Notes: generated by a model from the letters alone, not told the origin. A stretch of 64,000 bases of DNA from Erysipelothrix anatis (GCF_009828745.1 NZ_WTSX01000003.1:62001-126000), one strand, 5' to 3'; counted from the stretch's first letter, positions 11,507 to 58,571 are shown. Numbers and translations are program-made.

Positions 11507-11515
11507 AAGTACCTC

Positions 11516-13290: not shown

Positions 13291-13319
13291 ATTATACAAG
13301 ACTTATTTTTTATTGTATA
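13291..13319 (-). promoter_or_regulatory. Promoter of the heterodimeric ABC exporter operon
   Basis: On the minus strand TATACA (13314-13319) is 17 bp from a consensus TATAAT (13291-13296), about 40 nt upstream of the start. No obvious operator palindrome is seen in the rest of the 13250-13460 gap. Confidence 0.55.
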
Positions 13320-13457
13320 CAGAGATGCAACGTGAATTTTTGATTTTTAATTTTCTGAAAATGAACATTAATGAACAACGTTCGTTTACGCTACTATTTG
13401 AGCCTTATATCCACTGAACACGCATTATTAAAGAACTTCCGAAACTTTTTTCACAAA

Positions 13458-13482
13458 TGAAAAAAGTGCTAATGCACTTTTT
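13458..13482 (-). terminator. Terminator of the GDPD-ABC-MgtC operon
   Basis: AAAAGTGC pairs with GCACTTTT around TAAT, with a T-rich tail on the minus strand. It begins one base after the MgtC stop codon. Confidence 0.8.
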
Positions 13483-42876: not shown

Positions 42877-42879
42877 AAA

Positions 42880-44313
42880 CTAAATCTCCTTCATTGCCAC
42901 TTCAAAACTTCGGCCCCACGGTAGATACGCTTGAAACTCAGGTGTATCCAAAAATGAATACTTTCGGGCCTCTGCATTTAATAGCGTCGTTAGATAGTCA
43001 TTAATGGTGTCGCTATAGTTCTCAGCCCACACATCAAATCCCAAGTCACGCATTTTAGCATTCACCAGTAATCTAATGTCACCCTGGTAGAGTGCATCAT
43101 CGATAACTCGGTGTTTAATATAAGTAGGGTTCGTATCATAATACATCGCGACCACTAAATCCAGCACTAACGTACCAATCGAATTACTGCCCGTATTCCA
43201 TGCACTGTATCCTTGCAATGTTGCATTGTTGAGTTTATTCAACAAACGCTCAAGGCTACGGATATCACCACCATTACCATATTGAACATCTAAAACAAAC
43301 AGATTTTTATCATTATACCGTTCATAATATTCTAGTTGCCCGGTTGTGAGCGATGGTGTTGTTTGCTTCGGTTCGAATGCCAAATCAATTGTCTGACCTG
43401 TTGCTGGAAGTGTGAGGAACACATACGGTGTTTCTTTTTCTGTTGGTGTCATATTTGCAACTTTAAAAGCTCCTGCAATATTCTCGATGATTGTACGATC
43501 TTCAAATTTAGCAATATATTGCGGATCGACGAATTTGACATCAACGTTAAAGCCCTTTGTATTCTGATTAAGATCTCGAGCAACTAAGAGTGCTACCATC
43601 TCATCCGTTCCATTTTTAATAGAAACGCAATCTTGTAATGCGTGTGTTTCAATCATATTAAGCAACACTTCTTGTTCTCGGACATGAAGTCCGAACTCGT
43701 GGGTATCTTCTTGAACAAGTGAAACATAGTCAAGAATTCCCTCATTCGCTAAGTCAACACATGCTTTATTAAAGTGATGATTGCGTTGTCGTGCTGCCAA
43801 ATAATCAGCGAGAACGGTTTCCGGAATACGTTGTGTTACTAATTGAAGTTGCGCTTTAAACTGCGGCTCACGAGTGACTCGATGTACTAACTGGGAGTAT
43901 TCAAAGAGATCTTCCCAGATTTGAAGTTGACTGGAATCGGTGACAGTTGTGGTAAGACGTACGATGACTGAGTAGGCCAGAATTTTAATGTTTGGATTGA
44001 GGTCTTTAACATCACGAAGAGTTTGCAACAGTGCGTCATAATCTTGCTGAGTCTTTGTGGCATCCATTGTCCGGGATTGCACAAGCCCCCCAAAAAGTAA
44101 CGCATCAATCGAAATAACGAGTGTATCCGCTTCTGCACAATGATCCAATAAATACTTACGAATTGCTATCGTATCCCCTGCATGAGTAAAGTGTCCCAAA
44201 TACGATTTGGGAACCATATCTACCTTAACATCATGAATATTTCGTGTTGCTTCAAGAATAAAGTCAGTATGACATGGTCGATCATCAATTGGTAAAATTA
44301 GAATTTGTTTCAT
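42880..44313 (-). CDS. DUF4127 family protein
   Basis: This 477-residue protein begins with MKQILILPIDDRPCHTDFIL, a strand plus Asp-Asp-Arg-Pro-Cys motif characteristic of DUF4127. Further conserved spots are VISIDALLFGGLVQSR, LAYSVIVRLTTT, KNGTDEMVALLVARDLN and DVQYGNGGDIRS; the Asp-rich and Asn-Gly positions suggest a metal- or phosphate-binding hydrolase-like fold, but no function is known to me. No signal peptide. It overlaps the TIM-barrel gene by ATGA and is 3 bases from the FAD oxidoreductase gene. Confidence 0.78.
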   Translation of the reverse strand: MKQILILPIDDRPCHTDFILEATRNIHDVKVDMVPKSYLGHFTHAGDTIAIRKYLLDHCAEADTLVISIDALLFGGLVQSRTMDATKTQQDYDALLQTLRDVKDLNPNIKILAYSVIVRLTTTVTDSSQLQIWEDLFEYSQLVHRVTREPQFKAQLQLVTQRIPETVLADYLAARQRNHHFNKACVDLANEGILDYVSLVQEDTHEFGLHVREQEVLLNMIETHALQDCVSIKNGTDEMVALLVARDLNQNTKGFNVDVKFVDPQYIAKFEDRTIIENIAGAFKVANMTPTEKETPYVFLTLPATGQTIDLAFEPKQTTPSLTTGQLEYYERYNDKNLFVLDVQYGNGGDIRSLERLLNKLNNATLQGYSAWNTGSNSIGTLVLDLVVAMYYDTNPTYIKHRVIDDALYQGDIRLLVNAKMRDLGFDVWAENYSDTINDYLTTLLNAEARKYSFLDTPEFQAYLPWGRSFEVAMKEI

Positions 44314-44993
44314 AGTGCATCTATAGCTGCTCTAAACGATTTAATGGTTTCAACAAACCCTTCGTACTCATTACCTGTAACAACTGCTCCAATCATGATT
44401 GCTTTGAAACCAAGATCCTTAATGTTGGCAAGTTCTTCAATACGAACTTTCTTTTGAGTTGGCAATGCAGCTGGAATATCAATGGCGTCGATAATTTGCT
44501 TATAATGAAGTAAATCACGCATATTTAGTGGCTTTCCATAATCGTCCGGATGAACGATGCTCAATTCGGCAACTTCAGCACCAATTTGTGACCACATTTT
44601 GATTTCATCCAACGTGTATGCATAACTACATGCAAACATCCGGGTAAGTTTGTCTTGATTCACTACTTGAGGTGTTGCATCATGAAGGTAAAGTGACAAG
44701 AATTCGAAATCGTGTGCTAACACGTTTTTCAAATCGTCATTAACAACTTCTGGGTTACCACCAACTACAACGCCAACTGGTACTGGTGAATTCGTAATTA
44801 CTTTTTCAATAAATTCACGTTCTTGAGCAGCACTTCCAAAATCTGTTCCGCTCGCATGGTGATGCACATTAAGATGAATTTTCACTGCATCCGCACCATT
44901 TTCCCATGCAGCTTTTACATACTCATAGTCATTTTTAGGACAACTGACCACCAATTTTAAACCTTCTTCATTTAGCAAATCGATAAATTTCAT
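44310..44993 (-). CDS. TIM-barrel protein of unknown function
   Basis: This 227-residue protein has an alternating beta/alpha pattern: LKLVVSCPKNDYEYVKAAWENGADAVKIHLN at the N-terminus, PVGVVVGGNPEVV, AEVAELSIVHPDDYG, and a late phosphate-binding-like KAIMIGAVVTG loop. The layout recalls small ribulose-phosphate-binding barrels such as NanE-type epimerases or KDPG-type aldolases. A HHH cluster (NVHHHASGTDFG) near residue 43 is unusual and could bind metal. It overlaps the preceding HExxH gene by 26 bp and the DUF4127 gene by 4 bp. Reaction unknown. Confidence 0.65.
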   Translation of the reverse strand: MKFIDLLNEEGLKLVVSCPKNDYEYVKAAWENGADAVKIHLNVHHHASGTDFGSAAQEREFIEKVITNSPVPVGVVVGGNPEVVNDDLKNVLAHDFEFLSLYLHDATPQVVNQDKLTRMFACSYAYTLDEIKMWSQIGAEVAELSIVHPDDYGKPLNMRDLLHYKQIIDAIDIPAALPTQKKVRIEELANIKDLGFKAIMIGAVVTGNEYEGFVETIKSFRAAIDAL

Positions 44994-45537
44994 AATCTTG
45001 AACCCTCTCTTTTAAATACGTAGCTAGTGTTTCTTTTGTATACGAACCTTCACGAATGGCAATAACATACTCGGCAATGCGTGGATGTATCGGACAGCCA
45101 CTTTGCAGTTGCGAATAATAAATAGCAGATACTTCGGAAATGCGATGACGTTGGCGATACTTTAAAGTATCATACCAAACCCCTTGCATTTCGATTACGT
45201 GATACACTTCATGCATAAAATGCAGATTGTACGCTTGCGTTGTATCCATGATTTGTTCGTACTTTTGTATCCATTCGTTGTTAATTGTGATTGTTTGAGT
45301 ATTTGGATTGTATTGTGCATGAATCGATGCTGGATCTGTATCAACCATTTCAGTTCTAATGTTTTGTGCTTCAAGAAGTGCTGTGGGATCAATTTGCGTT
45401 TGCATTTTAACCGCCTCAGCAATTTGATCCATCACACGTTGACTGTTTTGAGTCATGTTCAATTCAAACCAATAAATATAGTCCGTTAAATCCTGAACTT
45501 TAACCTCTTCTTGTAACCAAGAATACAATGCGTTCAT
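44968..45537 (-). CDS. HExxH-motif protein, putative metal-dependent peptidase or amidohydrolase
   Basis: This 189-residue soluble protein is taken from the ATG at 45537 (MNALYSWLQEEV); upstream GGAAG supports either of two adjacent ATGs. HEVYH (His109, Glu110, His113) fits the zinc-binding HExxH pattern, and Glu137 (RISEVSAIYY), 24 residues on, could be the third ligand as in gluzincin-type sites. The rest is mainly helical and matches nothing I know. It overlaps the HyuA gene by 38 bp and the TIM-barrel gene by 26 bp. Position within a ring-opening operon suggests hydrolysis of a small amide or peptide; that is inference. Confidence 0.6.
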   Translation of the reverse strand: MNALYSWLQEEVKVQDLTDYIYWFELNMTQNSQRVMDQIAEAVKMQTQIDPTALLEAQNIRTEMVDTDPASIHAQYNPNTQTITINNEWIQKYEQIMDTTQAYNLHFMHEVYHVIEMQGVWYDTLKYRQRHRISEVSAIYYSQLQSGCPIHPRIAEYVIAIREGSYTKETLATYLKERVQDYEIYRFAK

Positions 45538-47638
45538 CATCTTCCAGTCCTTCCAAATCCATCCATGAAATGTCCTCAATTTGTTCTTTATTCATAAGTC
45601 CTGAATAGTTAAATGTTCGGAATTTGGCGAACATGTGTAACTCAGGTACTGTTTGACCAGCATCACTAAAGGTAGAATATTCATCCATGATAAACGTCAT
45701 TACGTCTTTAAATTGTCCTTTAGTACCGTAGACAATTTTTCCATTTGGACGTCGGAACTTAACGACACCATCTTTGGTGAGAATAACTGCAGATGTTGCT
45801 TTTCTCTTGAAGAGCCCTAATGCACGTTTCTCACTATGGTTAACTTCAACCCCAACGATTCGTTCATTTTCAACGACGATGTTTGCCTCAGCTGTTTCGT
45901 AGCCAAGCGATTGAATCGCTATTTTTTTAAGTTCTTCATGCGATTGTACAACGACAGCCGCATCGTTATTTTTTATTTCATTGGTACCTGATGCGTTCGC
46001 AATCAAGACATTATTCAAGGTATCCACTTCAATCGAAACTTCAATGGTTTCGCGAAGGGCTCCCATTTCTAACATTTTATCGATGATATCTGCGCGAATT
46101 CGCTTAATATCATCTTCATTTGGATTAACCACACTGCGTTCAATCTGTTCCGTAATCATTGCTAGTGCTACACCTATTGTAGAAATATAAGGCGCGTTAT
46201 TCACAACCTTGCTCTTTAGGTCATATTTCTTACCTAAGTAGTGCGTAATAACGCCTGCACTTCCGCCACCACCGTATAGGGTAATGAACGAACGCTCAAG
46301 TTCATAATCTGCAATGAGCTGTTCAATGATTGCCCAAATTTGCTCAGATGCACGGTCCATGCATTGTGTCGCAAGTGTTACTGGATCCATCTTCAAATAC
46401 TTTGCAAATGCTTCCCATGCCTGGGTATATCCCTTGCTCGTAGCACAGGAGTAATCCTCAGCATGAACACATTGAAGGTAGTTTGCGGCACCTGCAACCG
46501 TGAATGCATACGTTTTCCCACTACTATCTTCACAAACAACATAGTCATCAGGATCTTTCGCACGTGGTTGAATCATTTTAATAGTAAAGGTTTCCCCTTC
46601 AGGAATATCAAAACACTCATACGGTAAGTGCGCCAAGTGCGCAGACCGTGGTCCAACTACAATGCCTTGATTTGTATGGCGAATCATCGTACCACCGGCA
46701 ATTGCGGTCGTTTGGACATCTACTGATTTTAAGTATGTCTTATGACCTCCGACACTAGCATTTTTTATCATAACTTGGCCATCTTTAATGACAGAAATAT
46801 CCGTTGAGGTTCCGCCAATTTCCAAGAAGACGCCATCAGATATTTTCTCATGCATAATGGCTCCTGCAACACCTGCAGCAAGTCCCGACAACATTGTTAA
46901 GATTGGACGTTTGCGAACTTCATCAATGGACATAACGCCACCGTCAGCACGCATAATCATCAAATCACGTTTGATTCCTAGGTCTTTAATGACCTTTTCT
47001 GTCATGTCTGATGTTTCCATCATTTTTGGAATTAATGATCCATTAACAACTGCTGTTCGTGTGCGCAATTTAAGTCCATAAAGTTGAGAGATTTGGAAAC
47101 CTCCTGTAGCATAAAAACCTCGTTTTTGTGCAAGTTCGATAACACGAATTTCATGTTCCGGGTGTTCAATTGAGAATGCTTCACTCGCAACAATAACTTC
47201 TGCACCTTTCGCAATCAACGTATCAATTGCTTGACCTATCGTCGAATCAGAAACGTCTGAAGACGGGATAAACTCATGAAAGACTTCCAAAAACTTATTG
47301 GGTGCAAGTTCAAGTTTTTCTACATTAGTCTCATTGCGAGCAGACGTACCATCACCCATCCCCACGATACCAATCCGCGCAACATCACCTTCTAGTAATG
47401 CATTCGTAGCTTGAGTTGTACCGTGTGAGATAAAAACGACATTTTCTGCATCGATGTGATACTCGTCCAAAAGTTCACGCACAATGTTTATAATTCCTTT
47501 TGCAACACCTTCTTCACTGTCATGAGTTGTAGGGGTCTTTTTCAATGCGATGACGTCCATTGTTTCGTTATCAATTACGACTGCATCGGTAAAAGTACCA
47601 CCAACATCAATTCCTATTCTTACTTGTTTCTGATTCAT
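45500..47638 (-). CDS. Hydantoinase / oxoprolinase HyuA-family ATP-dependent hydrolase subunit
   Basis: This 712-residue protein matches the HyuA/OplaH A family: ATPase fold start RIGIDVGGTFTDAVVID, ISHGTTQATNALLEGD, MIMRADGGVMSIDEVRKRP, SGLAAGVAGAIMHE and FLEIGGTSTDISVIKDG, then a C-terminal regulatory part. HyuA proteins use ATP to open cyclic amides such as hydantoins, 5-oxoproline or pyrrole-2-carboxylate-like compounds, usually with a HyuB partner. No HyuB gene is visible here. It lies between the transporter (24 bp gap) and the HExxH gene. A -10 and cre-like site lie upstream of the transporter gene. Confidence 0.88.
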   Translation of the reverse strand: MNQKQVRIGIDVGGTFTDAVVIDNETMDVIALKKTPTTHDSEEGVAKGIINIVRELLDEYHIDAENVVFISHGTTQATNALLEGDVARIGIVGMGDGTSARNETNVEKLELAPNKFLEVFHEFIPSSDVSDSTIGQAIDTLIAKGAEVIVASEAFSIEHPEHEIRVIELAQKRGFYATGGFQISQLYGLKLRTRTAVVNGSLIPKMMETSDMTEKVIKDLGIKRDLMIMRADGGVMSIDEVRKRPILTMLSGLAAGVAGAIMHEKISDGVFLEIGGTSTDISVIKDGQVMIKNASVGGHKTYLKSVDVQTTAIAGGTMIRHTNQGIVVGPRSAHLAHLPYECFDIPEGETFTIKMIQPRAKDPDDYVVCEDSSGKTYAFTVAGAANYLQCVHAEDYSCATSKGYTQAWEAFAKYLKMDPVTLATQCMDRASEQIWAIIEQLIADYELERSFITLYGGGGSAGVITHYLGKKYDLKSKVVNNAPYISTIGVALAMITEQIERSVVNPNEDDIKRIRADIIDKMLEMGALRETIEVSIEVDTLNNVLIANASGTNEIKNNDAAVVVQSHEELKKIAIQSLGYETAEANIVVENERIVGVEVNHSEKRALGLFKRKATSAVILTKDGVVKFRRPNGKIVYGTKGQFKDVMTFIMDEYSTFSDAGQTVPELHMFAKFRTFNYSGLMNKEQIEDISWMDLEGLEDDERIVFLVTRRG

Positions 47639-47662
47639 ATAAGCCTCTTTTCTAAAAATTTA

Positions 47663-49042
47663 TTAGATTACCAATGGAATTTTTGCAACAAACACTGCAT
47701 AACTTAAGATAAGCAATGACATGAGCATTCCGTAAAGTAATACTTCTTTTAAGATATCGTTAACATCTACGTTGACAAAGTCTGCAACCCAGATATTTTG
47801 TGAATTCGTTGGATCTCCAAACCCTTGCATATTTCCATTTGCTCGTAATGCCCAAATGATTGCCATTGGACTGAATCCTGCAGCACCAAATAATGCCGGT
47901 AAAGCTCCACCAATACCATATGTATTTAAAGGTCCACGGTACAATGCAAGCAATGATCCTAATGTAAATCCAATGACATATGTTACCGGATTTTGTAGGT
48001 ATTGAACTAAGAATTTAATAGAAGGTCCCACGACTGTTTGAACTGTTTGGTATTGTACCCCTTTAATTAAGATACCCAAACCAATCATCAACAAGATAAC
48101 ACCAGCAACATCTTGAGTTCCCTCAACAAAACTTTGTGTTACTAATTGGAATACGTTCTTAGCTTTTGTAGTAAGGAGTAAGTAAACGATCCCTATAACA
48201 ATTGCAATTTCTGCAGGAACTGCATATTTCATCAATTGTGCGCCAATTAAAATTACAACTGGAACGACAGGGGCAAACATTGCGAGTGTTGAAACATTGT
48301 TGCCTTTACCACCGATGTTTGAGTCGGTTGTCCATGATTTAACGGATTTTGTTCCTTTGATATTTTTAAAGATGTAGATAAGCGGTACACAGAACGCAAC
48401 AATATAAATTGGTAATGACATTGAAATCAAGGCTTGTTGTGCTTGAGCTGCATTGTCTCCAAATGATGGCGCAAGTAATGGAATAAATGCTGAGTAGTTC
48501 ATTGGATTAAAGACACCACCGGAACTAAATGAGAATAGGAAAATAGTCGCAGCATGTAATGGTTTAATACCTGCTGAAAGCATAATTGGTAGGATAATTG
48601 ATCCAACTAAGATAATGCTTCCCAATCCCCCAATAGCCATAAAAATGACCGAAACAACAACGTAGAATACTAATGCGAGTACGAGTGGGCGGTCCCCAGC
48701 ATATTCTGCTGCAGTTTTAATAATTTTTTCAACAACGTTTTGTTTCATTAACATTTTTGAAAATGCGGATGCAAAGATAACGGTTGCGATAGCCCCAGCC
48801 ATCATTTTTACACCATCAGTAATAACAAAACTGAAAATACCTGGTGTCATTTTTTCGACGCCGTCGACCATAACGGGATAATCAAATAACCCTGCCATTG
48901 GTACCACACCAATTGATGCAACCAACGCAACAAGGAATCCCATCATTGGCAATGCAATAATTGTAGGGATTTTCTTTTTCATCATCATTGCGATGAAGAA
49001 CACAATAATTCCGAAAATTAATAAAAGTCTAACTGTATCCAT
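47663..49042 (-). CDS. Ion-transporter superfamily carboxylate/amino-acid transporter (GntP/CitM-like)
   Basis: This 459-residue protein has about twelve helices with the ion-transporter (IT) superfamily layout: MMMKKKIPTIIALPMMGFLVALVA, then a re-entrant-like IGGLGSIILVGSIILPIMLSAG and SSGGVFNPMNYSAFIP, and a second half with RGPLNTYGIGGALPALFGA. Family members carry gluconate, citrate and other organic acids. It is the first gene of the six-gene operon, so it likely imports the substrate acted on by the downstream HyuA-type enzyme. Behind an AAGGAGGAG site. Confidence 0.82.
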   Translation of the reverse strand: MDTVRLLLIFGIIVFFIAMMMKKKIPTIIALPMMGFLVALVASIGVVPMAGLFDYPVMVDGVEKMTPGIFSFVITDGVKMMAGAIATVIFASAFSKMLMKQNVVEKIIKTAAEYAGDRPLVLALVFYVVVSVIFMAIGGLGSIILVGSIILPIMLSAGIKPLHAATIFLFSFSSGGVFNPMNYSAFIPLLAPSFGDNAAQAQQALISMSLPIYIVAFCVPLIYIFKNIKGTKSVKSWTTDSNIGGKGNNVSTLAMFAPVVPVVILIGAQLMKYAVPAEIAIVIGIVYLLLTTKAKNVFQLVTQSFVEGTQDVAGVILLMIGLGILIKGVQYQTVQTVVGPSIKFLVQYLQNPVTYVIGFTLGSLLALYRGPLNTYGIGGALPALFGAAGFSPMAIIWALRANGNMQGFGDPTNSQNIWVADFVNVDVNDILKEVLLYGMLMSLLILSYAVFVAKIPLVI

Positions 49043-49207: not shown

Positions 49208-49236
49208 TTGTAAATATTTACACAATTGTATATGAT
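49208..49236 (+). promoter_or_regulatory. Promoter of the RpiR regulator, with embedded palindrome
   Basis: TTGTAA (49208-49213) is 17 bp from TATGAT (49231-49236). The perfect palindrome TGTAAATATTTACA (49209-49222) overlaps the -35, which fits autoregulation by the RpiR protein. Confidence 0.6.
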
Positions 49237-49261
49237 AATACTAACGAAAAGAGGACCCATT

Positions 49262-50050
49262 ATGGACAATCTCATCTCATATTTGGAGTATAACTTATCC
49301 GAATTTACACAATCCGAGCAAATTATTGCACGCTTTTTCTTATCAAAAAAAGATTTAGACCACACAGGAATTGTGGATGTATCCGAACGCCTTTTTGTTT
49401 CAACAGCAACTATTAGTCGTTTCGTAAATAAAATCGGGTTCGAAAACTATAAATCATTCTTATATGAATTCCAAAAGTCACTCGAATCCAACAAAAGTGA
49501 TGGAATCGCAATCAATAGTGAAGCACGTGACTTATGGAACGTCCACAACACTTACTATAAGTCGTTATACGAAAGTGTGGCAACAATTGATTTGAATTAT
49601 CTTGCGAATCGATTTATCAATAGCAAAATGATTTATACCTTTGGTTTTGGTAAAACACAAGAAACGACGAACATGATGATTTATCGGATTGAGAATCTAA
49701 TCCAAAACATTCGTAGTATTCCCCATTTTGAGCATCTTATGTACACACTTACGAATGTCATGAGTTATGAACACGTATTAGTCATCTTCTATCAACACGA
49801 ATATTTTCGAGATGATTTAGAGAAAATCATCATGATTGCGAAACAGCGTTTTGTTCCAATTATTGTTGTGACATTGTCGGCTCAAGTCGACAATCAAAAT
49901 TATGCCGAAGTCATCAAGCTTTATCCTCATGAAGATGATACCGTTGTTAAGTATTCCACAACAATGTATACTCCGTACCTACTCTTTATAGATATGATGT
50001 ACCTCGCAATCCAACGGAAGAAAAACCAACAACAGTTTAATTACGTATAA
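49262..50050 (+). CDS. RpiR-family regulator (HTH plus SIS domain)
   Basis: The protein has 262 residues from the start at 49262 (MDNLISYLEYNLSEFTQSEQ), with AAGAGGA upstream. The N-terminal HTH includes VSERLFVSTATISRFVNKIGFENYKSF, the family signature. From about residue 105 an SIS fold follows (MIYTFGFGKTQETTNMMIYR) where sugar-phosphate effectors bind; its usual Ser/Thr-rich loop is atypical, so the ligand may differ. It is divergent from the hydantoinase operon and probably controls it. Confidence 0.82.
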   Translation: MDNLISYLEYNLSEFTQSEQIIARFFLSKKDLDHTGIVDVSERLFVSTATISRFVNKIGFENYKSFLYEFQKSLESNKSDGIAINSEARDLWNVHNTYYKSLYESVATIDLNYLANRFINSKMIYTFGFGKTQETTNMMIYRIENLIQNIRSIPHFEHLMYTLTNVMSYEHVLVIFYQHEYFRDDLEKIIMIAKQRFVPIIVVTLSAQVDNQNYAEVIKLYPHEDDTVVKYSTTMYTPYLLFIDMMYLAIQRKKNQQQFNYV

Positions 50051-50077
50051 AAAAATAGCACCTAGCGTGCTATTTTT
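50051..50077. terminator. Bidirectional terminator between rpiR and yhfZ
   Basis: AAAAATAGCAC pairs with GTGCTATTTTT around 5 nt, serving the two convergent genes. Confidence 0.85.
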
Positions 50078-50999
50078 AGTAACTGGGAATCAGCGTACCA
50101 TTAATAATATCTTGTTGAATCTGAGTTACTGCATCTACACTAATTAGAGCGTTCATCACTGCGCCTAACTCTTTCCGATTACGATTTATAACGACTACCG
50201 CAATACGGTTATCATTATTCTTAAGATTCAATGGAATTGTATTCAGTGCATTCAATTCAATAGCACGGTCTTCTTCATTCCACACGGTAGCGTCAATGAC
50301 GCCATTTTGAATGGATTCTATCAATTGATTATACTTAATCTCTACAAATTCAACGCGCTTGCCTGCACATATTTCACGTACAAATGACGATTGATCAATC
50401 GAATCATGATCAATTCCAATACGCATTCCGTCCTCAATATCACGATACGAATCTTTCGAAAAAAGAATAATATGACCGGATAGATAACTACGGTCCGAGA
50501 ATTCTTTAATTATTTCAATACTCGTATCGTGTTTTAGAAAGGCAAGGGCAGCATATTTTGACATAATTGCGAAATCATAACGCCCATTAAGCATCATTTC
50601 AATCCGCTGTTGTGCCCCACGCATATAAGCCATGTTGACTGGAATATTAAGCGTGTTTTCCATCGTTGTTAATAAAGCGGTACTCAGCCCTTCATAGGTT
50701 CGAGAATAGGGCAGCGGCATTACCCCAACCAAAAATGAAATTCCAGCAAATTCAAGTAATAACTTCAAATCTTTCTGAGATAAGAATGTTCCTAATTGAC
50801 CACGAGATTCCACCGCAATTGCACCACTATCGACCAACTGCTTAATTGCATTTTGAATTGTACCTCGGGCAACCTCAATCATTTTTTCGTACTCAGAAAT
50901 TGTGAGAATTTTAGAACCGATATCTCTACTTATAAAGTCCTTTGCTAGATATTCAATCGCTAAGGCGTTTTTTGTCATCAATTTTCTTCTTGGTGTCAT
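50076..50999 (-). CDS. yhfZ: YhfZ-type transcription factor
   Basis: This 307-residue protein has an N-terminal winged-helix of GntR/YhfZ type (KILTISEYEKMIEVARGTIQNAIKQLVDSGAIAVESRGQLGTFL) and, from about residue 85, a bilobal binding-protein-like ligand domain (FLVGVMPLPYSRTYEGLSTAL, RYDFAIMSKYAAL). This matches E. coli YhfZ in length (301) and architecture. A terminator after yhfW and its own extended -10 (TGTTATAAT at 51021-51029) show that it is transcribed separately. It is the likely regulator of the yhf operon. Confidence 0.82.
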   Translation of the reverse strand: MTPRRKLMTKNALAIEYLAKDFISRDIGSKILTISEYEKMIEVARGTIQNAIKQLVDSGAIAVESRGQLGTFLSQKDLKLLLEFAGISFLVGVMPLPYSRTYEGLSTALLTTMENTLNIPVNMAYMRGAQQRIEMMLNGRYDFAIMSKYAALAFLKHDTSIEIIKEFSDRSYLSGHIILFSKDSYRDIEDGMRIGIDHDSIDQSSFVREICAGKRVEFVEIKYNQLIESIQNGVIDATVWNEEDRAIELNALNTIPLNLKNNDNRIAVVVINRNRKELGAVMNALISVDAVTQIQQDIINGTLIPSY

Positions 51000-51020
51000 A
51001 AAACTTCCTTTCTTTAATAT

Positions 51021-51029
51021 ATTATAACA
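51021..51029 (-). promoter_or_regulatory. Extended -10 of yhfZ
   Basis: On the minus strand TGT-TATAAT. The adjoining ATACATATTTGTTAT stretch is A/T-rich and partly symmetric. Confidence 0.5.
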
Positions 51030-51051
51030 AATATGTATGACGCTTCCTATG

Positions 51052-51079
51052 TAAAAAAAAGCACTTTCTCAGTGCTTTT
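51052..51079 (-). terminator. Terminator of the yhf operon after yhfW
   Basis: AAAAGCACT pairs with AGTGCTTTT around TTCTC and runs into eight T on the minus strand. The yhfW stop codon is in the loop region. Confidence 0.85.
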
Positions 51080-52286
51080 CAATCTCAGATAAGAAGGATG
51101 TTCCAAACTCAATCTCTGTCCCAAAATAATCAGCAACAGTTTGACCAACATCCGCCATTGTCCGCCGCGTTCCGATATCTATTAGACCTTCATGACCGAT
51201 TCGTTTGATGAGTAATGGGACACGTTCCCGTGTATGCTTACTGTGTCCTATGGTTGGGTCATTACCATGATCCGCCATTACAACCAGAATATCTTCAGGT
51301 GTTAATTTGGACATTAAAACCCCCAGTTGTTCGTCCGCTATGTTTAAGACATCGATATAACGTTCCGGATTTTCACCATGACCCGCCAAATCTGTTTCCT
51401 GAATGTTTAAGAAAAAGAAGCCTTCATCATATGTATCCAAATCGTTAATTAAAGCATTAAGTGTATCCGCAGTATCGACACATGGATAGTTTGTACCCAA
51501 CGGATTGTGAACAATATTTTCGACTTTACCGTAGAAATGGTTCTCAATTCCAATACGTGCCAGAGCAAGCGGTACCTGTTTCGTATGGTCCACTCCATAC
51601 CCAATATGAACCACATGATAGTTAGCGTCATAGACACCAGATGCTGGTGCATCGACGCCAATAAATCCATCTTTCGTAATGATATTAGCTTTAATGCGCT
51701 CAATCGTCACATCAGACCCACCAAAGGCAATAACACGCGGAACTTTAACATGTTTTCGGACAATATGTCCCACTTCCTGGATCATTTCGAATCCACAGGT
51801 GTCCATCGCTCCCACAACATTAATCGCTTGTCCTAAATCAGTTTCCATATTATCACCAATAATAATCATATTGTTAACGTTGAGGACTTGTAATCCATCT
51901 TGTTCAATGCGACTGACATTAAAACCAGAAGCAATGAGATCTTTTTCAATGTCATCCAAATGAATTTGGATATGTGTAAACAATGGTTTTTTAGGGTTAG
52001 TACCAGATATTTCTTGGTGCCCAAAGTAGGAGTCAGCACCAAAGTGTTTCAACTCACTGCTTCCGAAAATAGCATTCGAACTCTTTACAAAGTCAACTAC
52101 ATCTTTATCTAATGCATTCATGAGTCCCAAACTTTGTAAATGAGGCCATGTCTTGGTGTGCGGATACTCGAGCAAATGAAGGCATGTATTGGAGCCAATA
52201 TCATTCGGGCGCACCTTAACAACATCATCCATTGCTCCAATCCCAAAGCTATCCAAGACTACTACGATGAATCGTTTCTTACTCAT
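51069..52286 (-). CDS. yhfW: YhfW, phosphopentomutase-like alkaline-phosphatase superfamily enzyme
   Basis: The protein has 405 residues from the start at 52286 (MSKKRFIVVVLDSFGIGAMDD); E. coli YhfW is 408. N-terminal Asp in VVVLDSFGIG and C-terminal VMADHGNDPTIGHSKHTRERVPLL provide the dinuclear metal ligands of the phosphopentomutase/alkaline-phosphatase fold, and SNTCLHLL the candidate nucleophile Thr. The start overlaps the yhfX stop by 8 bp. It probably moves or removes a phosphate on a sugar-like intermediate; the exact substrate is unknown. Confidence 0.88.
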   Translation of the reverse strand: MSKKRFIVVVLDSFGIGAMDDVVKVRPNDIGSNTCLHLLEYPHTKTWPHLQSLGLMNALDKDVVDFVKSSNAIFGSSELKHFGADSYFGHQEISGTNPKKPLFTHIQIHLDDIEKDLIASGFNVSRIEQDGLQVLNVNNMIIIGDNMETDLGQAINVVGAMDTCGFEMIQEVGHIVRKHVKVPRVIAFGGSDVTIERIKANIITKDGFIGVDAPASGVYDANYHVVHIGYGVDHTKQVPLALARIGIENHFYGKVENIVHNPLGTNYPCVDTADTLNALINDLDTYDEGFFFLNIQETDLAGHGENPERYIDVLNIADEQLGVLMSKLTPEDILVVMADHGNDPTIGHSKHTRERVPLLIKRIGHEGLIDIGTRRTMADVGQTVADYFGTEIEFGTSFLSEIEKH

Positions 52287-53433
52287 AAAGTTTCCCCAAT
52301 CCATCATAAACTGCCATAATGCGGGGAGAATTTGAATGAATGCCTTCGACAAGTGCAACTTTACTACGTGTCACGAACATTTGAAAACGAAAGGCCATGA
52401 TAACCGTCGCACTCACTTCGTGTTCATGTTCTAGTTCAAAATAATAATCAATACTATCATCATCCACCGGAATCACTGTATCCATAACTTCAAGATCATG
52501 ATGATAAACAAGCGCATTTTTGACATGTGAACGACGATAATGCCCACCACCATAAGCATAGGCTTTCTGTCTAAAATTATGCGAAACTTCACTTAGATAG
52601 AGAACTGCTGGCAACTCCTCCAAATCACGATATGCGTGGGCTGGAGTGGTACCGGTCAAACCATGTCCTGGTTCGCCCATTGTGCCTTTACCTTCAGCCA
52701 TAATTTTTAATGTTGATACCGAGGTTGTAGAAGGAACATTAATTTGCTTAATTTCAAGCCCTTGGGATTCCATCATCTCAGTGGCGGTAATCACGGTTTG
52801 ATAGTTTGGTGTTGCTTGTGTCTTGTGGGTTTGGGTGTCGTAAAGATAACAGGGAAAAGCAGTAGCACCAACAATACGAATATGCGGCAATTGTCGCGTT
52901 GCTGCAATGAATGCATCAAGTTCAGTTAAGTCTACCCCTGACATTTGACCACTGTAATACAAATCATTTTCTGATGCCACTTTTACGATTACATCTTGAA
53001 TCATTTCTAGTTTTTGGGCCGTGTCATTTATTTCTTTAACTTTATCTAAAGAAAAGACGGTAAAAACCTCAGTTCCGTACGCCATTACACGCTCAAGCAT
53101 ATGTTTGGGTGTTTGCACGAGATGACCAACATTTCCAAGTGGAATATTGTGGCGCATCATAATTTCTGCTTCACGAAAATCTACAACTACCGCCCCGCGA
53201 TAACCCATCGCGACAAGCTCTTGTCCAATGACGGGATTACGTCCTAGTTGTTTGAGCATGAAGTACAAGTCAATATTTGCAGCAGAGGCCTCGGTTAGTA
53301 TTTTTTGCGCATTTTGGCGTAAGATGTCCATATCAACAACATAGGTATCCGGTTCTAACTGTCCTGCTTGGTGCATCTTTCGTACGGTATCTAAAAATTC
53401 TGGATTCCGGCGTTTTAAAACATCTATAAACAT
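52279..53433 (-). CDS. yhfX: YhfX, alanine-racemase-like PLP enzyme
   Basis: This 384-residue protein (E. coli 387) has a fold-type III barrel: DTYVVDMDILRQNAQKIL followed by YFMLKQLGRNP, where Lys61 should bind PLP. AVVVDFREAEIMMRH and VRIVGATAFPCYLYD continue the barrel, and a C-terminal beta domain follows (VSHNFRQKAYAYGGGHYRRS). It overlaps yhfS by 10 bp. Racemisation or decarboxylation of an amino acid is plausible. Confidence 0.88.
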   Translation of the reverse strand: MFIDVLKRRNPEFLDTVRKMHQAGQLEPDTYVVDMDILRQNAQKILTEASAANIDLYFMLKQLGRNPVIGQELVAMGYRGAVVVDFREAEIMMRHNIPLGNVGHLVQTPKHMLERVMAYGTEVFTVFSLDKVKEINDTAQKLEMIQDVIVKVASENDLYYSGQMSGVDLTELDAFIAATRQLPHIRIVGATAFPCYLYDTQTHKTQATPNYQTVITATEMMESQGLEIKQINVPSTTSVSTLKIMAEGKGTMGEPGHGLTGTTPAHAYRDLEELPAVLYLSEVSHNFRQKAYAYGGGHYRRSHVKNALVYHHDLEVMDTVIPVDDDSIDYYFELEHEHEVSATVIMAFRFQMFVTRSKVALVEGIHSNSPRIMAVYDGLGKLYE

Positions 53434-54530
53434 GATAACACCTGCTCAACTGCACTTTCTAAAATACGTAATACAGTTTCATGACCGCTACGCATTGGAT
53501 TAATTCGAATCCAATATGCTTCAAATTGATTATCGGATTGAAGCATCGTTTTGGAAACACGATAAAACATTGGAACCACTTCAAACTTACTTTCAGCACC
53601 TACTGGATATGCTGCAGCACCTTGTTTTGCCGCTTCTTCTAAAACTGCCTTAGCGATCGGTTGATCAAAGCGCACACACACTACTTTGGATTGCGCATTC
53701 ACGATGACCGCTTCCGCAACGCCTTTAACTCCGATTGTGTTGATGTGATTTGCAAGAGCTTCTATTTGTGTTGCCTGTATAGCAAGAGATACAGGGGCGT
53801 AAACTAACGAACGCATTGCATCCAAGGCTTCAAATCCTTGAATTTGACTTCCCCCTGAATAGTGAAATTTGCGAATCGTTTCGATGTATGCTTGTTTTCC
53901 AATCACACATCCAATACCTTGAGGACCTAATAGTTTGAACATTGAAAAACATGATAAGTCAGCACCTAATTGTGCACCTGTAAAGGGAACTTTCATGACT
54001 GCATAATTGTCATCGGTGATAACGACGCAATCTGGGCTCACATTCTTGATAGTAGCGATAACTTGCTCCATGTCATAACTATCTGCCAATTGTTGGCGTG
54101 TATACTGAACTAAGGCTGCATGAATCGTTGGGTTCTTTTGCAATGTCGATGCGAGATCCTCTAAATCGTTAAAATTACACGATAGGGTTTGAATTCCAAG
54201 CATCTCAAAACTTGTTATTGTTGTTGAATAGATTGGAGCCTCATGTACTAAAACTGTATCGTTAGCTTTCACAGCACTTGCAAAAGCTTCTCGGATGGCT
54301 GCCGTTCCAGCACCACGAACGAAGCACGCATCTTCAACCCCAAAGAAATCTGCGAGAACACGCTCTACTTTTCGGGTTGTTTCCGGCTGGTTCCCAGATG
54401 GATGAACACCCAAATCCCCTTGCTGTAAGATATCGTAGCCGTTGAAATATTTTGTCATACTATCAACAAGTTTAAATTGCATTTTAGTTGCTGCTTCAAG
54501 ATTCATACTTTGTAGCGGAAAAGCTTTCAT
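53424..54530 (-). CDS. yhfS: YhfS, aminotransferase-fold PLP enzyme
   Basis: The protein has 368 residues from the start at 54530 (MKAFPLQSMNLEAATKMQFK), with GGAGG 8 nt upstream; E. coli YhfS is 361. Fold-type I features: GNQPETTRKVERVLADFFGVEDACFVRGAGTAAIREAF, VITDDNYAVMKVP, and Lys199 in FSMFKLLGPQGIG as PLP lysine. The family is related to Cys/Met-metabolism and aminotransferase enzymes. One base after php, 10 bp overlap with yhfX. Confidence 0.86.
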   Translation of the reverse strand: MKAFPLQSMNLEAATKMQFKLVDSMTKYFNGYDILQQGDLGVHPSGNQPETTRKVERVLADFFGVEDACFVRGAGTAAIREAFASAVKANDTVLVHEAPIYSTTITSFEMLGIQTLSCNFNDLEDLASTLQKNPTIHAALVQYTRQQLADSYDMEQVIATIKNVSPDCVVITDDNYAVMKVPFTGAQLGADLSCFSMFKLLGPQGIGCVIGKQAYIETIRKFHYSGGSQIQGFEALDAMRSLVYAPVSLAIQATQIEALANHINTIGVKGVAEAVIVNAQSKVVCVRFDQPIAKAVLEEAAKQGAAAYPVGAESKFEVVPMFYRVSKTMLQSDNQFEAYWIRINPMRSGHETVLRILESAVEQVLSCL

Positions 54531-54531
54531 A

Positions 54532-55416
54532 TTATTTACCTCCAAATATTCGTTGCGGATTCTCCACTAACATTTTGTGGATTGATGCCTCGGTAATGCC
54601 CCTTTGTCGTAATAAAGGTAAGAAGTCTGTAAAGAGATAGGTATAACCAATACCTCCTTGATACTTGAAATTTGATTTACGAGTAATATCTAAAGAGAGC
54701 GTAATTGCATCTAACTTTCCGAGCTCTTGGAGTTCAAACAAATAATCTGCCCGTGTTGTATCTGGGAAATAATTATTTTTCCCAATCGTATCGAATGCTA
54801 CATTGAAACCTTGGTTAATTAACGCTTTGATTTGATCAAGATTTCCGGAAAGCTCTTGATGTCCAATGATGACACGTGATGGATCAATGCCCTTCTCAAC
54901 AAAGAATGATGCTTGTTCAAGAGCAAGCGTTCCGAGCGATGTATGTGTCGAAATGACTGTGTTGGTACGTTTGGCTGCAATCACTGAAGCTTCAAAAACT
55001 TTACGTTCCATCGGTTCAAATACGTCTTTACTTGTTCCAATTTCCCCAATTAAAGCTGCGCGTGTTGTTCCCCCATCGATTCCCGATTCGATTTCAGAAA
55101 CCATAAAATCAGCCAATTCCTCAATACTCATTGAGTAGACAAAGTCCGGAAGAAATGGTTCTTTGTAAAAACCTGTAGCCTGCAAAATATTAATACCAGT
55201 TGCTACTGCAACTTTATTAACATATTCAACATTGCGACCCATTCCATTTGCGGTTACATCAACGATATTACGAACACCCAAATCGTACAGTTCCTTGTAC
55301 TCTTGAATTGTTTCGTCAAAACAATCGAGGAAGCAATCCGGATTGTTCTTTACCTTCGATAAATCAATTGTTGTGTGTTCATGAATTAGTGTGATGCCAT
55401 CTTTAAGTAATGTCAT
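54532..55416 (-). CDS. php: Phosphotriesterase homology protein (Php)
   Basis: The protein has 294 residues from the start at 55416 (MTLLKDGITLIHEHTTIDLS), with AAGGAG 6 nt upstream; the E. coli protein has 292. Zinc ligands are His12 and His14 (LIHEHTTID), Glu125 (ALIGEIGTS) where phosphotriesterase has a carbamylated Lys, His158 (ISTHTSLG), His186 (IIGHQEL) and Asp243 (SLDITRK). The numbering matches E. coli Php. Family members hydrolyse lactones, esters or phospho-compounds; the E. coli substrate is unresolved as far as I know. Confidence 0.9.
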   Translation of the reverse strand: MTLLKDGITLIHEHTTIDLSKVKNNPDCFLDCFDETIQEYKELYDLGVRNIVDVTANGMGRNVEYVNKVAVATGINILQATGFYKEPFLPDFVYSMSIEELADFMVSEIESGIDGGTTRAALIGEIGTSKDVFEPMERKVFEASVIAAKRTNTVISTHTSLGTLALEQASFFVEKGIDPSRVIIGHQELSGNLDQIKALINQGFNVAFDTIGKNNYFPDTTRADYLFELQELGKLDAITLSLDITRKSNFKYQGGIGYTYLFTDFLPLLRQRGITEASIHKMLVENPQRIFGGK

Positions 55417-55426
55417 ATAAATCTCC

Positions 55427-56440
55427 TTACTCTTGTAGTGTAAAATAGCGGCTTTCAAGCGCCGATCGCTCGAAAGGAATTTGTTGTGCAAAACCCATCA
55501 TCGCCTGAATATAAGTAGGGTCACTTTTGCAAATCATCAAAATGCTGGTGCTGAGTTGCGATGTTGGAATGCTGATTGCACTAAGTCCTAACATGTTAAT
55601 CACTTTCAGATAATTTTTATGTGACTGTGACTGTTTAGCTGTGGTTAGTGCGTCATAGTGTCCTGATAAAGAATCACCATATTCAATAAAATCAATCGGA
55701 CCTTCAAAGGTAATTAACACCGAGGTATCAAAGTCAAAATGACGAAGCTCATCGATCATCATTGATCGATCTGTATTGATATAGCGTAGGTTCGTATAAT
55801 CCGAAACATCCAAATGATGTTGAACAATTCGTAAACACTGTTGATACGGTTCAAAATTTGGTGTACTTACGACAACGTTAATCGATGCTTGGTTATCTTC
55901 TGGTAACGTTAGCGCAACCACATCCCGTAATACCTCAAATTCCCGAGCCATAAACCCAATCGATGGTTGAAACGTGATGTTGTCGGTTGATTTTTTTGAA
56001 TATTTTGACAATGCATCATTACAAATTAAGGGACTGATAAATCCATATAAGTTAAGCGCCGCTGCCGGTGCCAAAACAGAGCCACCGCCATCAGTTCCAA
56101 TTCCTAAGTCATTAATCCCTTTAAAAACATTAATCGCAGTACCACTTGATGATCCAGTCATATAGCGACCTGTTATAGGATTAACCAGTTCTAAATCTAT
56201 GGCACGCCCATTCAGGGCCATAGCATCGCGAGTATGCATTAAATAGCCATGTGACTCAAGCATTTCTAAGAATTCAATGGGAATTACGTTGGTGTTTTTC
56301 ACACCAACGTAATAACATGTTTCTTCACGATTGAGTCGTTGTTCGCAATCTACGATTTTTTGTACATTGACTTCGACAACAGCTTTTTCACCGAGCGCTT
56401 GATAGGTACGTAATGCAAATGAAGAAACGTTTCTTGTCAT
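55427..56440 (-). CDS. Compact amidase-signature enzyme
   Basis: This 337-residue protein has the complete amidase Ser-cisSer-Lys triad: Lys48 (YYVGVKNTN), Ser98 (TGSSSGTA) and Ser121 (GIGTDGGGSVLAP). It is more than 100 residues shorter than normal amidases (450-500), missing most of the region after residue 200. No SD precedes the ATG, but it follows the yhfT stop by one base, so translation is probably coupled. No amidase is found in the E. coli yhf operon, making this an addition that fits amide hydrolysis in the pathway. Confidence 0.8.
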   Translation of the reverse strand: MTRNVSSFALRTYQALGEKAVVEVNVQKIVDCEQRLNREETCYYVGVKNTNVIPIEFLEMLESHGYLMHTRDAMALNGRAIDLELVNPITGRYMTGSSSGTAINVFKGINDLGIGTDGGGSVLAPAAALNLYGFISPLICNDALSKYSKKSTDNITFQPSIGFMAREFEVLRDVVALTLPEDNQASINVVVSTPNFEPYQQCLRIVQHHLDVSDYTNLRYINTDRSMMIDELRHFDFDTSVLITFEGPIDFIEYGDSLSGHYDALTTAKQSQSHKNYLKVINMLGLSAISIPTSQLSTSILMICKSDPTYIQAMMGFAQQIPFERSALESRYFTLQE

Positions 56441-56441
56441 A

Positions 56442-57737
56442 TTACGCTACGACCGGTAATGCCCAAAGTCCGATAAGCAATAAGATATTCAAGAGAATAC
56501 CAAAGATAATTGCTGCAACCGGTCCAACTGCAAGATCCACAATTGGTTTCTTGGATTGTTTATTTAACAAGTAGAATCCGATAACGAATAAACTACCAAT
56601 ACCTGCAGCCATTTTATCGGCAGCAATAACCCCACCAACAAGTAATGCAACTTCGAGAACACGACTCATTGCTGTACGGATATGCTCTCCCATTTCACGA
56701 ACACCAGGGAATTTATCCATAGCTTTCGCAAAGATATTAATTAGGAATACTTCAAGAACCATAACAGCTGCACCAACAACAAACGCGAGCAGTGGATTAC
56801 CATGTAATGCAATACCCACTACGAAGACGAATGTTGCTCCAGCAGGACCATAAACACCAGTAACAATTCCTGTTGTAAAGACGAGTGGAACAAATCCAAT
56901 CGCACGCGCAAAGGCTGCCATAGCTGCACTGGTCATTTGACCTTCAGACATTAATGCTAAAGAAGTTGGGTCACCAGCAATGATGAGAAGACTTGTTCCA
57001 GCGGCAATAAGTCCACCCATGATTCCAAGAATCCACCAGTTTTTTTGAATACGTGCAACTTGACCTGAGAATACGTTGGTTAAGTCTTGATTAGATGTAC
57101 TGGTATCTTGTTTATTTTGTGTTGCGAAAACAACCATAAGAATTGTTCCGACAAGCATTGAGATTCCTTCAGCATTTAAAGCAACTTTAGCTTCACCAAG
57201 TGTGAAGATACCGAATTTTTTAACAACGAACCAAACAAGAACTGTAATAATTCCTGTAATCATTCCTTTTTTGAATCCATGTTGCATCGCAATCGCTACA
57301 GCTGGGAACACTGCAAATGCGACTGTGACAGGTGCACTAACACTTCCAAGTGCTGTTAAGAAGTTAAATGGCATTGCTGCAAAGAGATCAACAACAAACT
57401 GTAATCCACCAAGGATTGCTGCACCATAAATAGCACCAACAACACCAGACAGAATTAATCCCGTTAAATCATCTTTAAAAATTGTACCGATAATATCAGT
57501 CGCTAATAAAATGGAGTGAATTAAAATAATTGAAGCAGCAATTGATGTTGGAATTCCGAATCCAACAACAAGTCCAAAGCTAATTGCAAAACTGGTTGCC
57601 GCTAACTCTTTACGGCTAATTTTACCTTCAAAATATTGTGGCACGACAGGTCTAAATCCGTCGTTAAAGACTGCAATACCCTTATTGGCAAGGATGGATG
57701 CCAAAGCACCAATTGCCATGATAATAATATATTCCAT
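56442..57737 (-). CDS. yhfT: YhfT membrane protein, probable transporter
   Basis: This 431-residue protein (E. coli 434) has about eleven hydrophobic helices. Recognisable YhfT features are ASILANKGIAVFNDGFRPVVPQYFEGKISRKELAATSFAIS near the N-terminus and GVYGPAGATFVFVVGIALHGNP in the middle. No ATP-binding partner is present, so it would be a secondary transporter. It is presumably the uptake protein of the yhf pathway. Transport has not been shown for this family to my knowledge. Confidence 0.86.
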   Translation of the reverse strand: MEYIIIMAIGALASILANKGIAVFNDGFRPVVPQYFEGKISRKELAATSFAISFGLVVGFGIPTSIAASIILIHSILLATDIIGTIFKDDLTGLILSGVVGAIYGAAILGGLQFVVDLFAAMPFNFLTALGSVSAPVTVAFAVFPAVAIAMQHGFKKGMITGIITVLVWFVVKKFGIFTLGEAKVALNAEGISMLVGTILMVVFATQNKQDTSTSNQDLTNVFSGQVARIQKNWWILGIMGGLIAAGTSLLIIAGDPTSLALMSEGQMTSAAMAAFARAIGFVPLVFTTGIVTGVYGPAGATFVFVVGIALHGNPLLAFVVGAAVMVLEVFLINIFAKAMDKFPGVREMGEHIRTAMSRVLEVALLVGGVIAADKMAAGIGSLFVIGFYLLNKQSKKPIVDLAVGPVAAIIFGILLNILLLIGLWALPVVA

Positions 57738-57754
57738 AGTTCTTCTCCTTTAGG

Positions 57755-58114
57755 TTATTTGATGAATTCTCGAATGAGAATTGGCACAACGACTTCCGCG
57801 TGTTGTGCAGTAAAACCAAATGCTTTTTTCCCTTTTTCTATTTCTTCAATCATGAATGATTCATCCTTGATTGATCCTGGCATCGAAACTGTTGAACACA
57901 GATCGGAACCAAGTAATGCCATTGCCATCGCAAGTGCGCCACCGCCACCGGTGTTGCATGCGCCAATATAATAGTCATATTGTCCACTCTTCATTGCCAT
58001 CGCAGCATCAAGATCACTTTTTATATCAATCGATACACTGTCTCCTCCTATCTTTTTCGCTAATTCCGCAATTGCCTGTTTGTCTATTTGTCCACCGACG
58101 ACGATTTTAACCAT
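57755..58114 (-). CDS. yhfU: YhfU (DUF2620) small protein
   Basis: This 119-residue protein (E. coli 117) matches YhfU/DUF2620: MVKIVVGGQIDKQAIAELAKKIG, then KSGQYDYYIGACNTGGGGALAMAMALLG and SMPGSI. The glycine-rich stretch suggests nucleotide or phosphate binding. It is 12 bases after yhfY and 17 before yhfT. Function unknown; its small size and position suggest an accessory or regulatory subunit. Confidence 0.84.
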   Translation of the reverse strand: MVKIVVGGQIDKQAIAELAKKIGGDSVSIDIKSDLDAAMAMKSGQYDYYIGACNTGGGGALAMAMALLGSDLCSTVSMPGSIKDESFMIEEIEKGKKAFGFTAQHAEVVVPILIREFIK

Positions 58115-58126
58115 CTTTAAGTCCTC

Positions 58127-58471
58127 CTATTGGGTGTTCAACACATTCGTGAGATGTAACCAAATGTATTGCTTTTCTGATTCTGGAAACGGGATTGTTG
58201 AGTGATCAAGAATTTTTTCCGTTACTTCAAGTACCGCTTCATAATGTTCACTTGCTTTAATCTCATCAAGGATAAATGCATCCATGGGTGCAACAACATC
58301 ATCATTTCGAATTCGTTGTGACGCCATTGCGAGATGGGTTAAGAAAACCTCAGTAGCAGTCTCATTCCAGTTATGTTCAAGTGCATACTCTTGAAATATC
58401 TTCATTGCGTAAGCATATACTTCAGCGTCAATGACATTATTTTCAAGCAAAATGTTCAATCTCGTTTCCAC
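58127..58471 (-). CDS. yhfY: YhfY, PRD-domain protein
   Basis: The protein has 114 residues if translation begins at the GTG at 58471 (read as Met: METRLNILLENNVID), which has AGGAGG 4 nt upstream; an ATG 18 nt earlier is in frame but lacks a binding site. The helical pattern NVIDAEVYAYAMKIFQEYALEHNWNETATEVFLTHLAMASQRI with its conserved His is a PTS-regulation domain (PRD), as in E. coli YhfY. No HTH is attached. It is the first gene of the operon. Confidence 0.78.
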   Translation of the reverse strand: METRLNILLENNVIDAEVYAYAMKIFQEYALEHNWNETATEVFLTHLAMASQRIRNDDVVAPMDAFILDEIKASEHYEAVLEVTEKILDHSTIPFPESEKQYIWLHLTNVLNTQ

Positions 58472-58484
58472 AAAACCTCCTATG

Positions 58485-58498
58485 TACAAAATATTGTA
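58485..58498. promoter_or_regulatory. Palindrome in the yhf operon leader
   Basis: TACAAAATATTGTA has perfect TACAA/TTGTA arms and lies about 15-30 nt downstream of the predicted RNA start, a repressor position. YhfZ is the candidate. Confidence 0.5.
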
Positions 58499-58515
58499 TA
58501 TTCATCTGTAATTTC

Positions 58516-58544
58516 ATTATATTCAGTCAAAAAAGCTTTGTCAA
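58516..58544 (-). promoter_or_regulatory. Consensus promoter of the yhf operon
   Basis: On the minus strand perfect TTGACA (58539-58544) is 17 bp from perfect TATAAT (58516-58521). Confidence 0.9.
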
Positions 58545-58571
58545 TTAAAATGTAATCGTTTACTTTGCCAA

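What the first reader, a model, noticed from the sequence alone, without database searches (positions are those of the whole stretch)
50076..58544. A nearly complete yhf operon in a Gram-positive chromosome, with an amidase inserted
Seen: eight tightly packed genes behind one consensus promoter, with yhfZ under its own. Their lengths match E. coli YhfY, U, T, Php, S, X, W and Z, and an amidase-signature gene lies between yhfT and php. Known: the E. coli yhf operon has no settled function that I know of. Inference: the set is an inherited or transferred metabolic unit (transporter, PLP enzymes, metal hydrolase, phosphomutase), and the amidase hints that the substrate or an intermediate carries an amide.
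Basis: partly seen in the sequence, partly recalled or inferred. Interest (0 to 1): 0.8.

Follow-up and report, generated by a model that had tools for sequence, protein, structure and literature searches.

The report
Complete yhf operon with dedicated amidase
This Erysipelothrix chromosome carries all eight genes of the functionally unsolved E. coli yhf operon plus an amidase, and the amidase proves to be a regular ninth member of this gene set across many bacteria that E. coli lacks, which gives new clues to what the operon breaks down.

Summary
Window 50076-58544 encodes YhfY-U-T-amidase-Php-S-X-W behind one perfect sigma-A-type promoter, then YhfZ as its own unit. All eight yhf families are confirmed (29-50% identity to E. 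coli). The amidase is neither a random nor a one-off insertion. It is a compact amidase-signature family with an intact Lys-Ser-Ser triad. In 392 genomes of the phylum it occurs in 11 of the 13 that have YhfT and in none of the 379 that lack it. Among 86 classifiable yhf loci, 62 carry it, at six different places in the gene order, once fused to YhfT. On the YhfT tree its presence needs 8 changes (21 when shuffled).

New clues: a palindrome (ATACAAAATATTGTAT type) before the operon or yhfZ in many lineages; GlcN-6-P deaminase (NagB) just downstream in four lineages; a secreted PBP4B/AmiE-like hydrolase in or beside nine operons; weak but significant similarity of YhfU to the SFCGS protein of the DUF4310-4312 cassette.

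Best reading: a repressor-controlled uptake and catabolic unit for an amide-linked amino-sugar or amino-acid compound. The substrate is inferred, not shown. A known kind of unknown function; the dedicated amidase and operator are new as far as I could check.

The parts
58516..58544 (-). promoter, TTGACA-17-TATAAT, 12/12
   Evidence: sequence
58484..58499 (.). palindromic operator candidate ATACAATATTTTGTAC, between the -10 box and the first ribosome site; proposed YhfZ site
58551..58564 (.). cre-like palindrome AGTAAACGATTACA just upstream of the -35; kept in E. aquatica L041 although the flanks differ; not above chance in the window as a whole
58127..58471 (-). yhfY, stand-alone PRD-domain protein (GTG start; an alternative TTG lies at 58489); His52 and Arg59 invariant in 88 sequences (numbered from the TTG)
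57755..58114 (-). yhfU, DUF2620, invariant Cys53 in a GACNTGGGG motif; similar to Gly_rich_SFCGS
56442..57737 (-). yhfT, polytopic membrane protein, proposed transporter; no solved relative found
55427..56440 (-). compact amidase-signature enzyme, 337 aa; Lys48, Ser97, Ser121 invariant in 51 homologues
54532..55416 (-). php, phosphotriesterase-family metallohydrolase; H37, H39, E150, H183, H211, D268 invariant (numbered from the long ORF, TTG 55491)
53424..54530 (-). yhfS, fold-type I PLP enzyme, Lys204 invariant (numbered from the long ORF, TTG 54545)
52279..53433 (-). yhfX, alanine-racemase-fold PLP enzyme, Lys61 invariant
51069..52286 (-). yhfW, phosphopentomutase-like; Ser/Thr at the place of the B. 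cereus enzyme's Thr85 (numbering and role from memory)
51055..51080 (-). terminator hairpin after yhfW
50076..50999 (-). yhfZ, GntR-type repressor candidate with a binding-protein-like effector domain

Best explanation
The locus is a complete, presumably working yhf system in its amidase-bearing form. It is an inducible uptake and catabolic unit for a small compound that holds an amide and probably an amino sugar or amino acid. Proposed working: YhfZ sits on the palindrome between the -10 box and the first gene and leaves it when a ligand binds its C-terminal domain. YhfY, a lone PRD domain with conserved histidines, adds PTS-type control. YhfT with YhfU brings the compound in. The amidase hydrolyses an amide bond; Php hydrolyses an ester, lactone or phosphoester; YhfX racemises or epimerises an amino-acid part that YhfS then deaminates or cleaves; YhfW moves the phosphate on the sugar part. 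The product joins central metabolism, in some lineages as GlcN-6-P through NagB. Shown by computation: family membership, intact active-site residues, the amidase's exclusive and long-standing link with yhf, the conserved palindrome, and the NagB and PBP4B-like neighbours. Inferred: the order of steps, the substrate class, and the roles of YhfZ, YhfY, YhfU and YhfT.
For: Families and conserved catalytic residues. Amidase in 11 of 13 YhfT-positive and 0 of 379 YhfT-negative genomes, Fisher p about 1e-19 uncorrected for relatedness. Amidase in 62 of 86 classifiable loci, 8 changes on the YhfT tree against 21 shuffled, in six gene-order contexts plus cut-off contigs, once fused to YhfT (L052, 768 aa). 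Also in Fusobacteriota (Cetobacterium somerae) and Spirochaetota. Amidase-less loci mostly lack the family genome-wide. Palindrome: 46 of 76 strong sites in 1.67 Mb lie within 300 nt upstream of yhf genes; in L086 one lies between the divergent amidase and yhfU, in L077 one lies about 200 nt before a PBP4B-like gene. NagB just downstream in L033, L045, L048, L051, L058, L101, L103, L111, L113, L118, L119. PBP4B-like hydrolase between yhf genes in L062 and L078 and beside the operon in seven more, all with a signal-like start, six with a lipobox.
Against: No substrate, activity or transport was tested. NagB and the PBP4B-like gene are present in a minority of loci and absent from the window's own operon. 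Amidase-less forms persist in whole clades, so the amide step is not essential to the core. YhfT resembles no solved transporter. The operator score was designed after seeing sites in the same loci, and the shuffles kept base composition only.
Confidence: 0.45

Rival explanations
1. The operon is a dedicated cell-wall salvage route: a PBP4B/AmiE-like enzyme outside frees a muropeptide part, YhfT imports it, and the amidase and PLP enzymes take apart its amino-acid part while the sugar goes to NagB.
For: PBP4B-like hydrolases (NCBIfam best model PRK03642) in or beside nine yhf loci, with signal-like starts; E. coli yfeW (PBP4B) and B. subtilis amiE sit in MurNAc recycling operons (PMC5061867); NagB downstream.
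Against: No MurNAc etherase or NagZ was noticed among the flanking genes that were identified; the PBP4B-like scores are below the equivalog cut-off (221-309 bits against 385); most loci lack both genes.
Confidence: 0.2
2. The operon is biosynthetic or protective: it builds or detoxifies an amide-bearing compound, and YhfT exports it.
For: PLP enzymes, a phosphomutase-like enzyme and a membrane protein would also fit a synthesis; amidase-signature enzymes also occur in natural-product clusters (ClbL among the structural matches).
Against: NagB downstream is a catabolic enzyme; a repressor with a binding-protein-like domain, a PRD protein and a cre-like site at the promoter are typical of catabolic control; no ligase, carrier protein or kinase is in the set.
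Confidence: 0.2
3. The substrate is a phosphonate or phosphoester-amino acid and the amino-sugar link is incidental.
For: YhfZ's effector domain weakly matches phosphonate-binding proteins (PF12974, 8e-6, under the cut-off), YhfS weakly matches an AEP aminotransferase model, and YhfW matches metalloenzyme-superfamily phosphomutases.
Against: These are weak superfamily matches; no C-P bond enzyme was seen.
Confidence: 0.1
4. The amidase is a chance neighbour of the yhf genes.
For: E. coli and about a quarter of the loci lack it.
Against: Never found away from yhf in 392 genomes, and kept through many rearrangements.
Confidence: 0.01

Closest known systems
E. coli K-12 yhf operon (yhfZYXW-php-yhfUTS)
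   Same: all eight protein families; tight packing
   Different: E. coli has no amidase in the operon; gene order and the place of yhfZ differ; 29-50% identity
Cetobacterium somerae yhf cluster (NZ_CP092520)
   Same: Z, Y, U, T, amidase, Php, S, X, W: the same set as the window, annotated gene by gene
   Different: other phylum; yhfZ comes first
Amidase-signature family (GatA, malonamidase E2, hydrazidase)
   Same: fold (VIA Z 24-28), Lys-cisSer-Ser triad
   Different: 337 aa against about 410-480 in most matches, shortened, 13-20% identity, found only with yhf in the genomes searched
SFCGS / DUF4312 / DUF4311 / DUF4310 cassette with amidohydrolase, SelA-like PLP enzyme and KDGP aldolase
   Same: small PRD protein, small Cys-Gly protein, membrane proteins, metallohydrolase and PLP enzyme in the same order; YhfU matches PF14272 in 22 of 35 members, best 1.4e-5
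   Different: membrane part split in two and not shown to be homologous to YhfT; no YhfX, YhfW or amidase seen

Membership tests
yhf operon | YhfT (PF10797) and YhfU (PF10941) present above cut-off | tested here: met
yhf operon | YhfX, YhfS, YhfW, Php, YhfY, YhfZ homologues present in the same cluster | tested here: met
   Php scores 314 bits, below the 486-bit NCBIfam equivalog cut-off of that model
yhf operon | same gene order as E. coli (not treated as defining, since order varies across the family) | tested here: not met
Amidase-signature enzymes | PF01425 above cut-off | tested here: met
   41.7 bits against 27, but only profile positions 124-220 align
Amidase-signature enzymes | Lys-cisSer-Ser triad | tested here: met
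   K48, S97, S121 invariant in 51 sequences; S97-S121 spacing of 24 as in malonamidase E2 S131-S155 (E2 roles from memory)
Amidase-signature enzymes | fold | tested here: met
   AlphaFold pLDDT 86.9; Z 24-28, about 290-316 residues aligned
Amidase-signature enzymes | hydrolysis of an amide | not testable with these tools
   needs an assay
Phosphopentomutase (YhfW) | phosphorylated Thr and metal ligands | tested here: inconclusive
   Ser/Thr110 (39 Ser, 38 Thr in 77) aligns with the B. cereus enzyme's Thr85; D36 and the DHG motif are invariant; Ser in place of Thr in the window and half the family may matter
PTS enzyme II (YhfT/YhfU) | EIIC fold or PTS domain | tested here: inconclusive
   no PTS domain among the Pfam hits; no usable fold match either way
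SFCGS/DUF4310-4312 cassette | SFCGS-type small protein | tested here: inconclusive
   22 of 35 YhfU match PF14272, best 1.4e-5; the window's own copy E 0.009, below cut-off; hhalign E 0.001
SFCGS/DUF4310-4312 cassette | DUF4311 and DUF4310 membrane proteins | tested here: inconclusive
   hhalign of YhfT E 0.34 and 0.14, only two sequences on one side

The most novel reading that the evidence does not exclude
YhfY-YhfU-YhfT and the SFCGS/DUF4310-4312 cassette are two branches of one unrecognised class of uptake system, in which a small RpiB-like Cys-Gly protein and a lone PRD protein serve a membrane carrier of a fold without solved relatives; the yhf branch feeds a pathway for amide-linked amino sugars in which a dedicated amidase makes an early cut.
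Probability: 0.25. Interest if true: 0.8.

Novelty: new variant of a known kind. Interest (0 to 1): 0.55.

Why it matters
The yhf operon has been sequenced and partly crystallised in E. coli (YhfX, YhfS and YhfZ have PDB entries), yet the papers held here give it no function. Three results narrow the substrate from 'unknown' to a testable class: a whole amidase family occurs only with yhf in the genomes searched, the gene set shares a palindromic operator across several Bacillota families, and GlcN-6-P deaminase is a recurrent neighbour. The set spans Bacillota, Spirochaetota, Fusobacteriota and Pseudomonadota, which names better organisms than E. coli in which to test it.

Tried and rejected
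YhfT fold comparison with solved transporters: no usable match (best Z 5.7 to VcINDY over 138 residues). YhfT against DUF4310 and DUF4311: not significant. Amidase in viral contigs: none. Literature for yhf function: only gene lists, structures and unrelated B. subtilis yhf names. Loss of the phosphomutase nucleophile in YhfW was suspected and not borne out, since Ser or Thr stands there. Random amidase insertion rejected. The extra 123-143 aa genes in L037-L039 and most other recurrent flank clusters (DNA ligase, PcrA, cytidylate kinase, ABC transporters) were taken as lineage context. HAD phosphatases beside some Bacillaceae operons (L100, L101, L103) were noted but not pursued.

Full report
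What was claimed and what is there. The window carries, on the minus strand from 58544 to 50076, yhfY, yhfU, yhfT, an amidase gene, php, yhfS, yhfX, yhfW and yhfZ. Every yhf family is confirmed by profile and by comparison with the E. coli MG1655 operon. The eight genes Y to W are packed at -10 to +17 nt behind a 12/12 promoter and end in a terminator hairpin; yhfZ is its own unit with its own terminator. The host is an Erysipelothrix close to E. aquatica. Some starts move: YhfY 58471, Php 55416, YhfS 54530, YhfW 52286 (read).

The amidase is part of the system. A protein search of 17 genomes put a homologue next to yhfT or within the operon in 11 of 13 YhfT genomes. A profile search of 392 genomes of the phylum found the family in 11, all among the 13 with YhfT (Fisher p about 1e-19, not corrected for common descent). 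From 80 named loci of the species-level genome collection, plus whole-genome loci and E. coli, gene orders were read with profiles built here. Of 86 loci that could be classed, 62 hold the amidase, counting the YhfT-amidase fusion of [Clostridium] citroniae (L052, one reading frame of 768 aa in a draft genome). It stands after T, after Php, after W, between X and S, between T and Z, or divergently before U. On the YhfT tree its presence needs 8 changes against 21 in shuffled labels (quick tree, root not inferred, so gain and loss cannot be told apart). One clade of Bacillaceae and Lactobacillaceae lacks it (a Listeria contig in the same clade is cut off), as do E. coli and a Vibrio plasmid locus that also lacks YhfS. 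Genomes whose operon lacks it mostly lack it altogether. It also occurs in Cetobacterium (Fusobacteriota) and Spirochaetales.

What the amidase is. Pfam's Amidase model covers only its middle, but K48, S97 and S121 are invariant in 51 homologues, with the 24-residue spacing of the two serines known from malonamidase E2 (from memory). The AlphaFold model (pLDDT 86.9) aligns with GatA, hydrazidase, plant fatty acid amide hydrolase and malonamidase E2 at Z 24-28. It is a shortened amidase-signature enzyme with the catalytic core intact. Activity was not tested.

Other parts. Catalytic residues of Php (metal ligands), YhfX and YhfS (PLP lysine) and YhfW (metal ligands, Ser/Thr at the nucleophile position) are conserved across 77-85 sequences. 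YhfT gives a confident model (pLDDT 88.3) without a convincing solved match. YhfU has an invariant Cys in a Gly-rich loop; 22 of 35 members match the SFCGS family, best 1.4e-5, and a short stretch resembles RpiB-type isomerases in a single profile comparison (E 1.6e-4 over 27 columns). The SFCGS cassettes found here run PRD, SFCGS, DUF4312, DUF4311, DUF4310, amidohydrolase, SelA-like PLP enzyme, KDGP aldolase, the same layout as YhfY-U-T-Php-S. Homology of the membrane parts is not shown.

Regulation. A palindrome of the type ATACAAAATATTGTAT lies at 58484-58499, between the -10 box and the first gene. It was first seen between Erysipelothrix species, then as perfect palindromes upstream of yhf genes in other families. 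A score fitted to it finds 76 strong sites in 1.67 Mb of loci, 46 of them within 300 nt upstream of yhf genes; several of the rest lie just after yhfT. The score was built on these loci, so the count is descriptive. YhfZ is the natural candidate to bind it; that is inference.

Substrate clues. NagB, glucosamine-6-phosphate deaminase, lies just downstream of the operon in eleven loci of four lineages (Lachnospiraceae, the B. licheniformis group, other Bacillaceae, Izimaplasma) and not among the upstream neighbours scanned. A serine hydrolase best matched by PBP4B lies between yhf genes in two loci and beside the operon in seven; all have signal-like starts, six a lipobox, and six the motif ASVTKV. 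PBP4B and AmiE genes sit in MurNAc recycling operons in E. coli and B. subtilis (PMC5061867). These point to amino-sugar or cell-wall material, but the window's own operon has neither neighbour.

Verdict. Interest 0.55.

Noticed in passing
window 57755-58114 and YhfU of L100-L105, L108-L110, L112, L114-L120: The residue after the invariant Cys of YhfU is Asn in most loci but Glu in the whole Bacillaceae/Listeria/Lactobacillaceae clade, which is the clade without the amidase; it is Met in L037-L039.
   Followed up: partly
window 41527-49042, minus strand: A neighbouring operon (antiporter-like membrane protein, hydantoinase A, two unassigned genes, DUF4127, FAD oxidoreductase) starts beside an RpiR-type regulator at 49226-50050 that runs the other way; it looks like a separate catabolic unit.
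   Followed up: no
L142 (Vibrio halioticoli plasmid) 9438-15848: A yhf cluster Z-Y-Php-U-T-X-W without YhfS and without the amidase.
   Followed up: partly
L052 10001-12307: YhfT and the amidase in one 768-aa reading frame; a fusion or a lost stop in a draft genome.
   Followed up: partly
L080 genome (G397:C25:11304-11522): Amidase remnant with three stops in a genome whose operon lacks the gene, apparently a decaying copy.
   Followed up: no
L037 13405-13794, L038 9070-9501, L039 11694-12065: Small unassigned gene (zinc-ribbon-like start) between yhfZ and yhfY in the divergent Erysipelotrichaceae branch.
   Followed up: no
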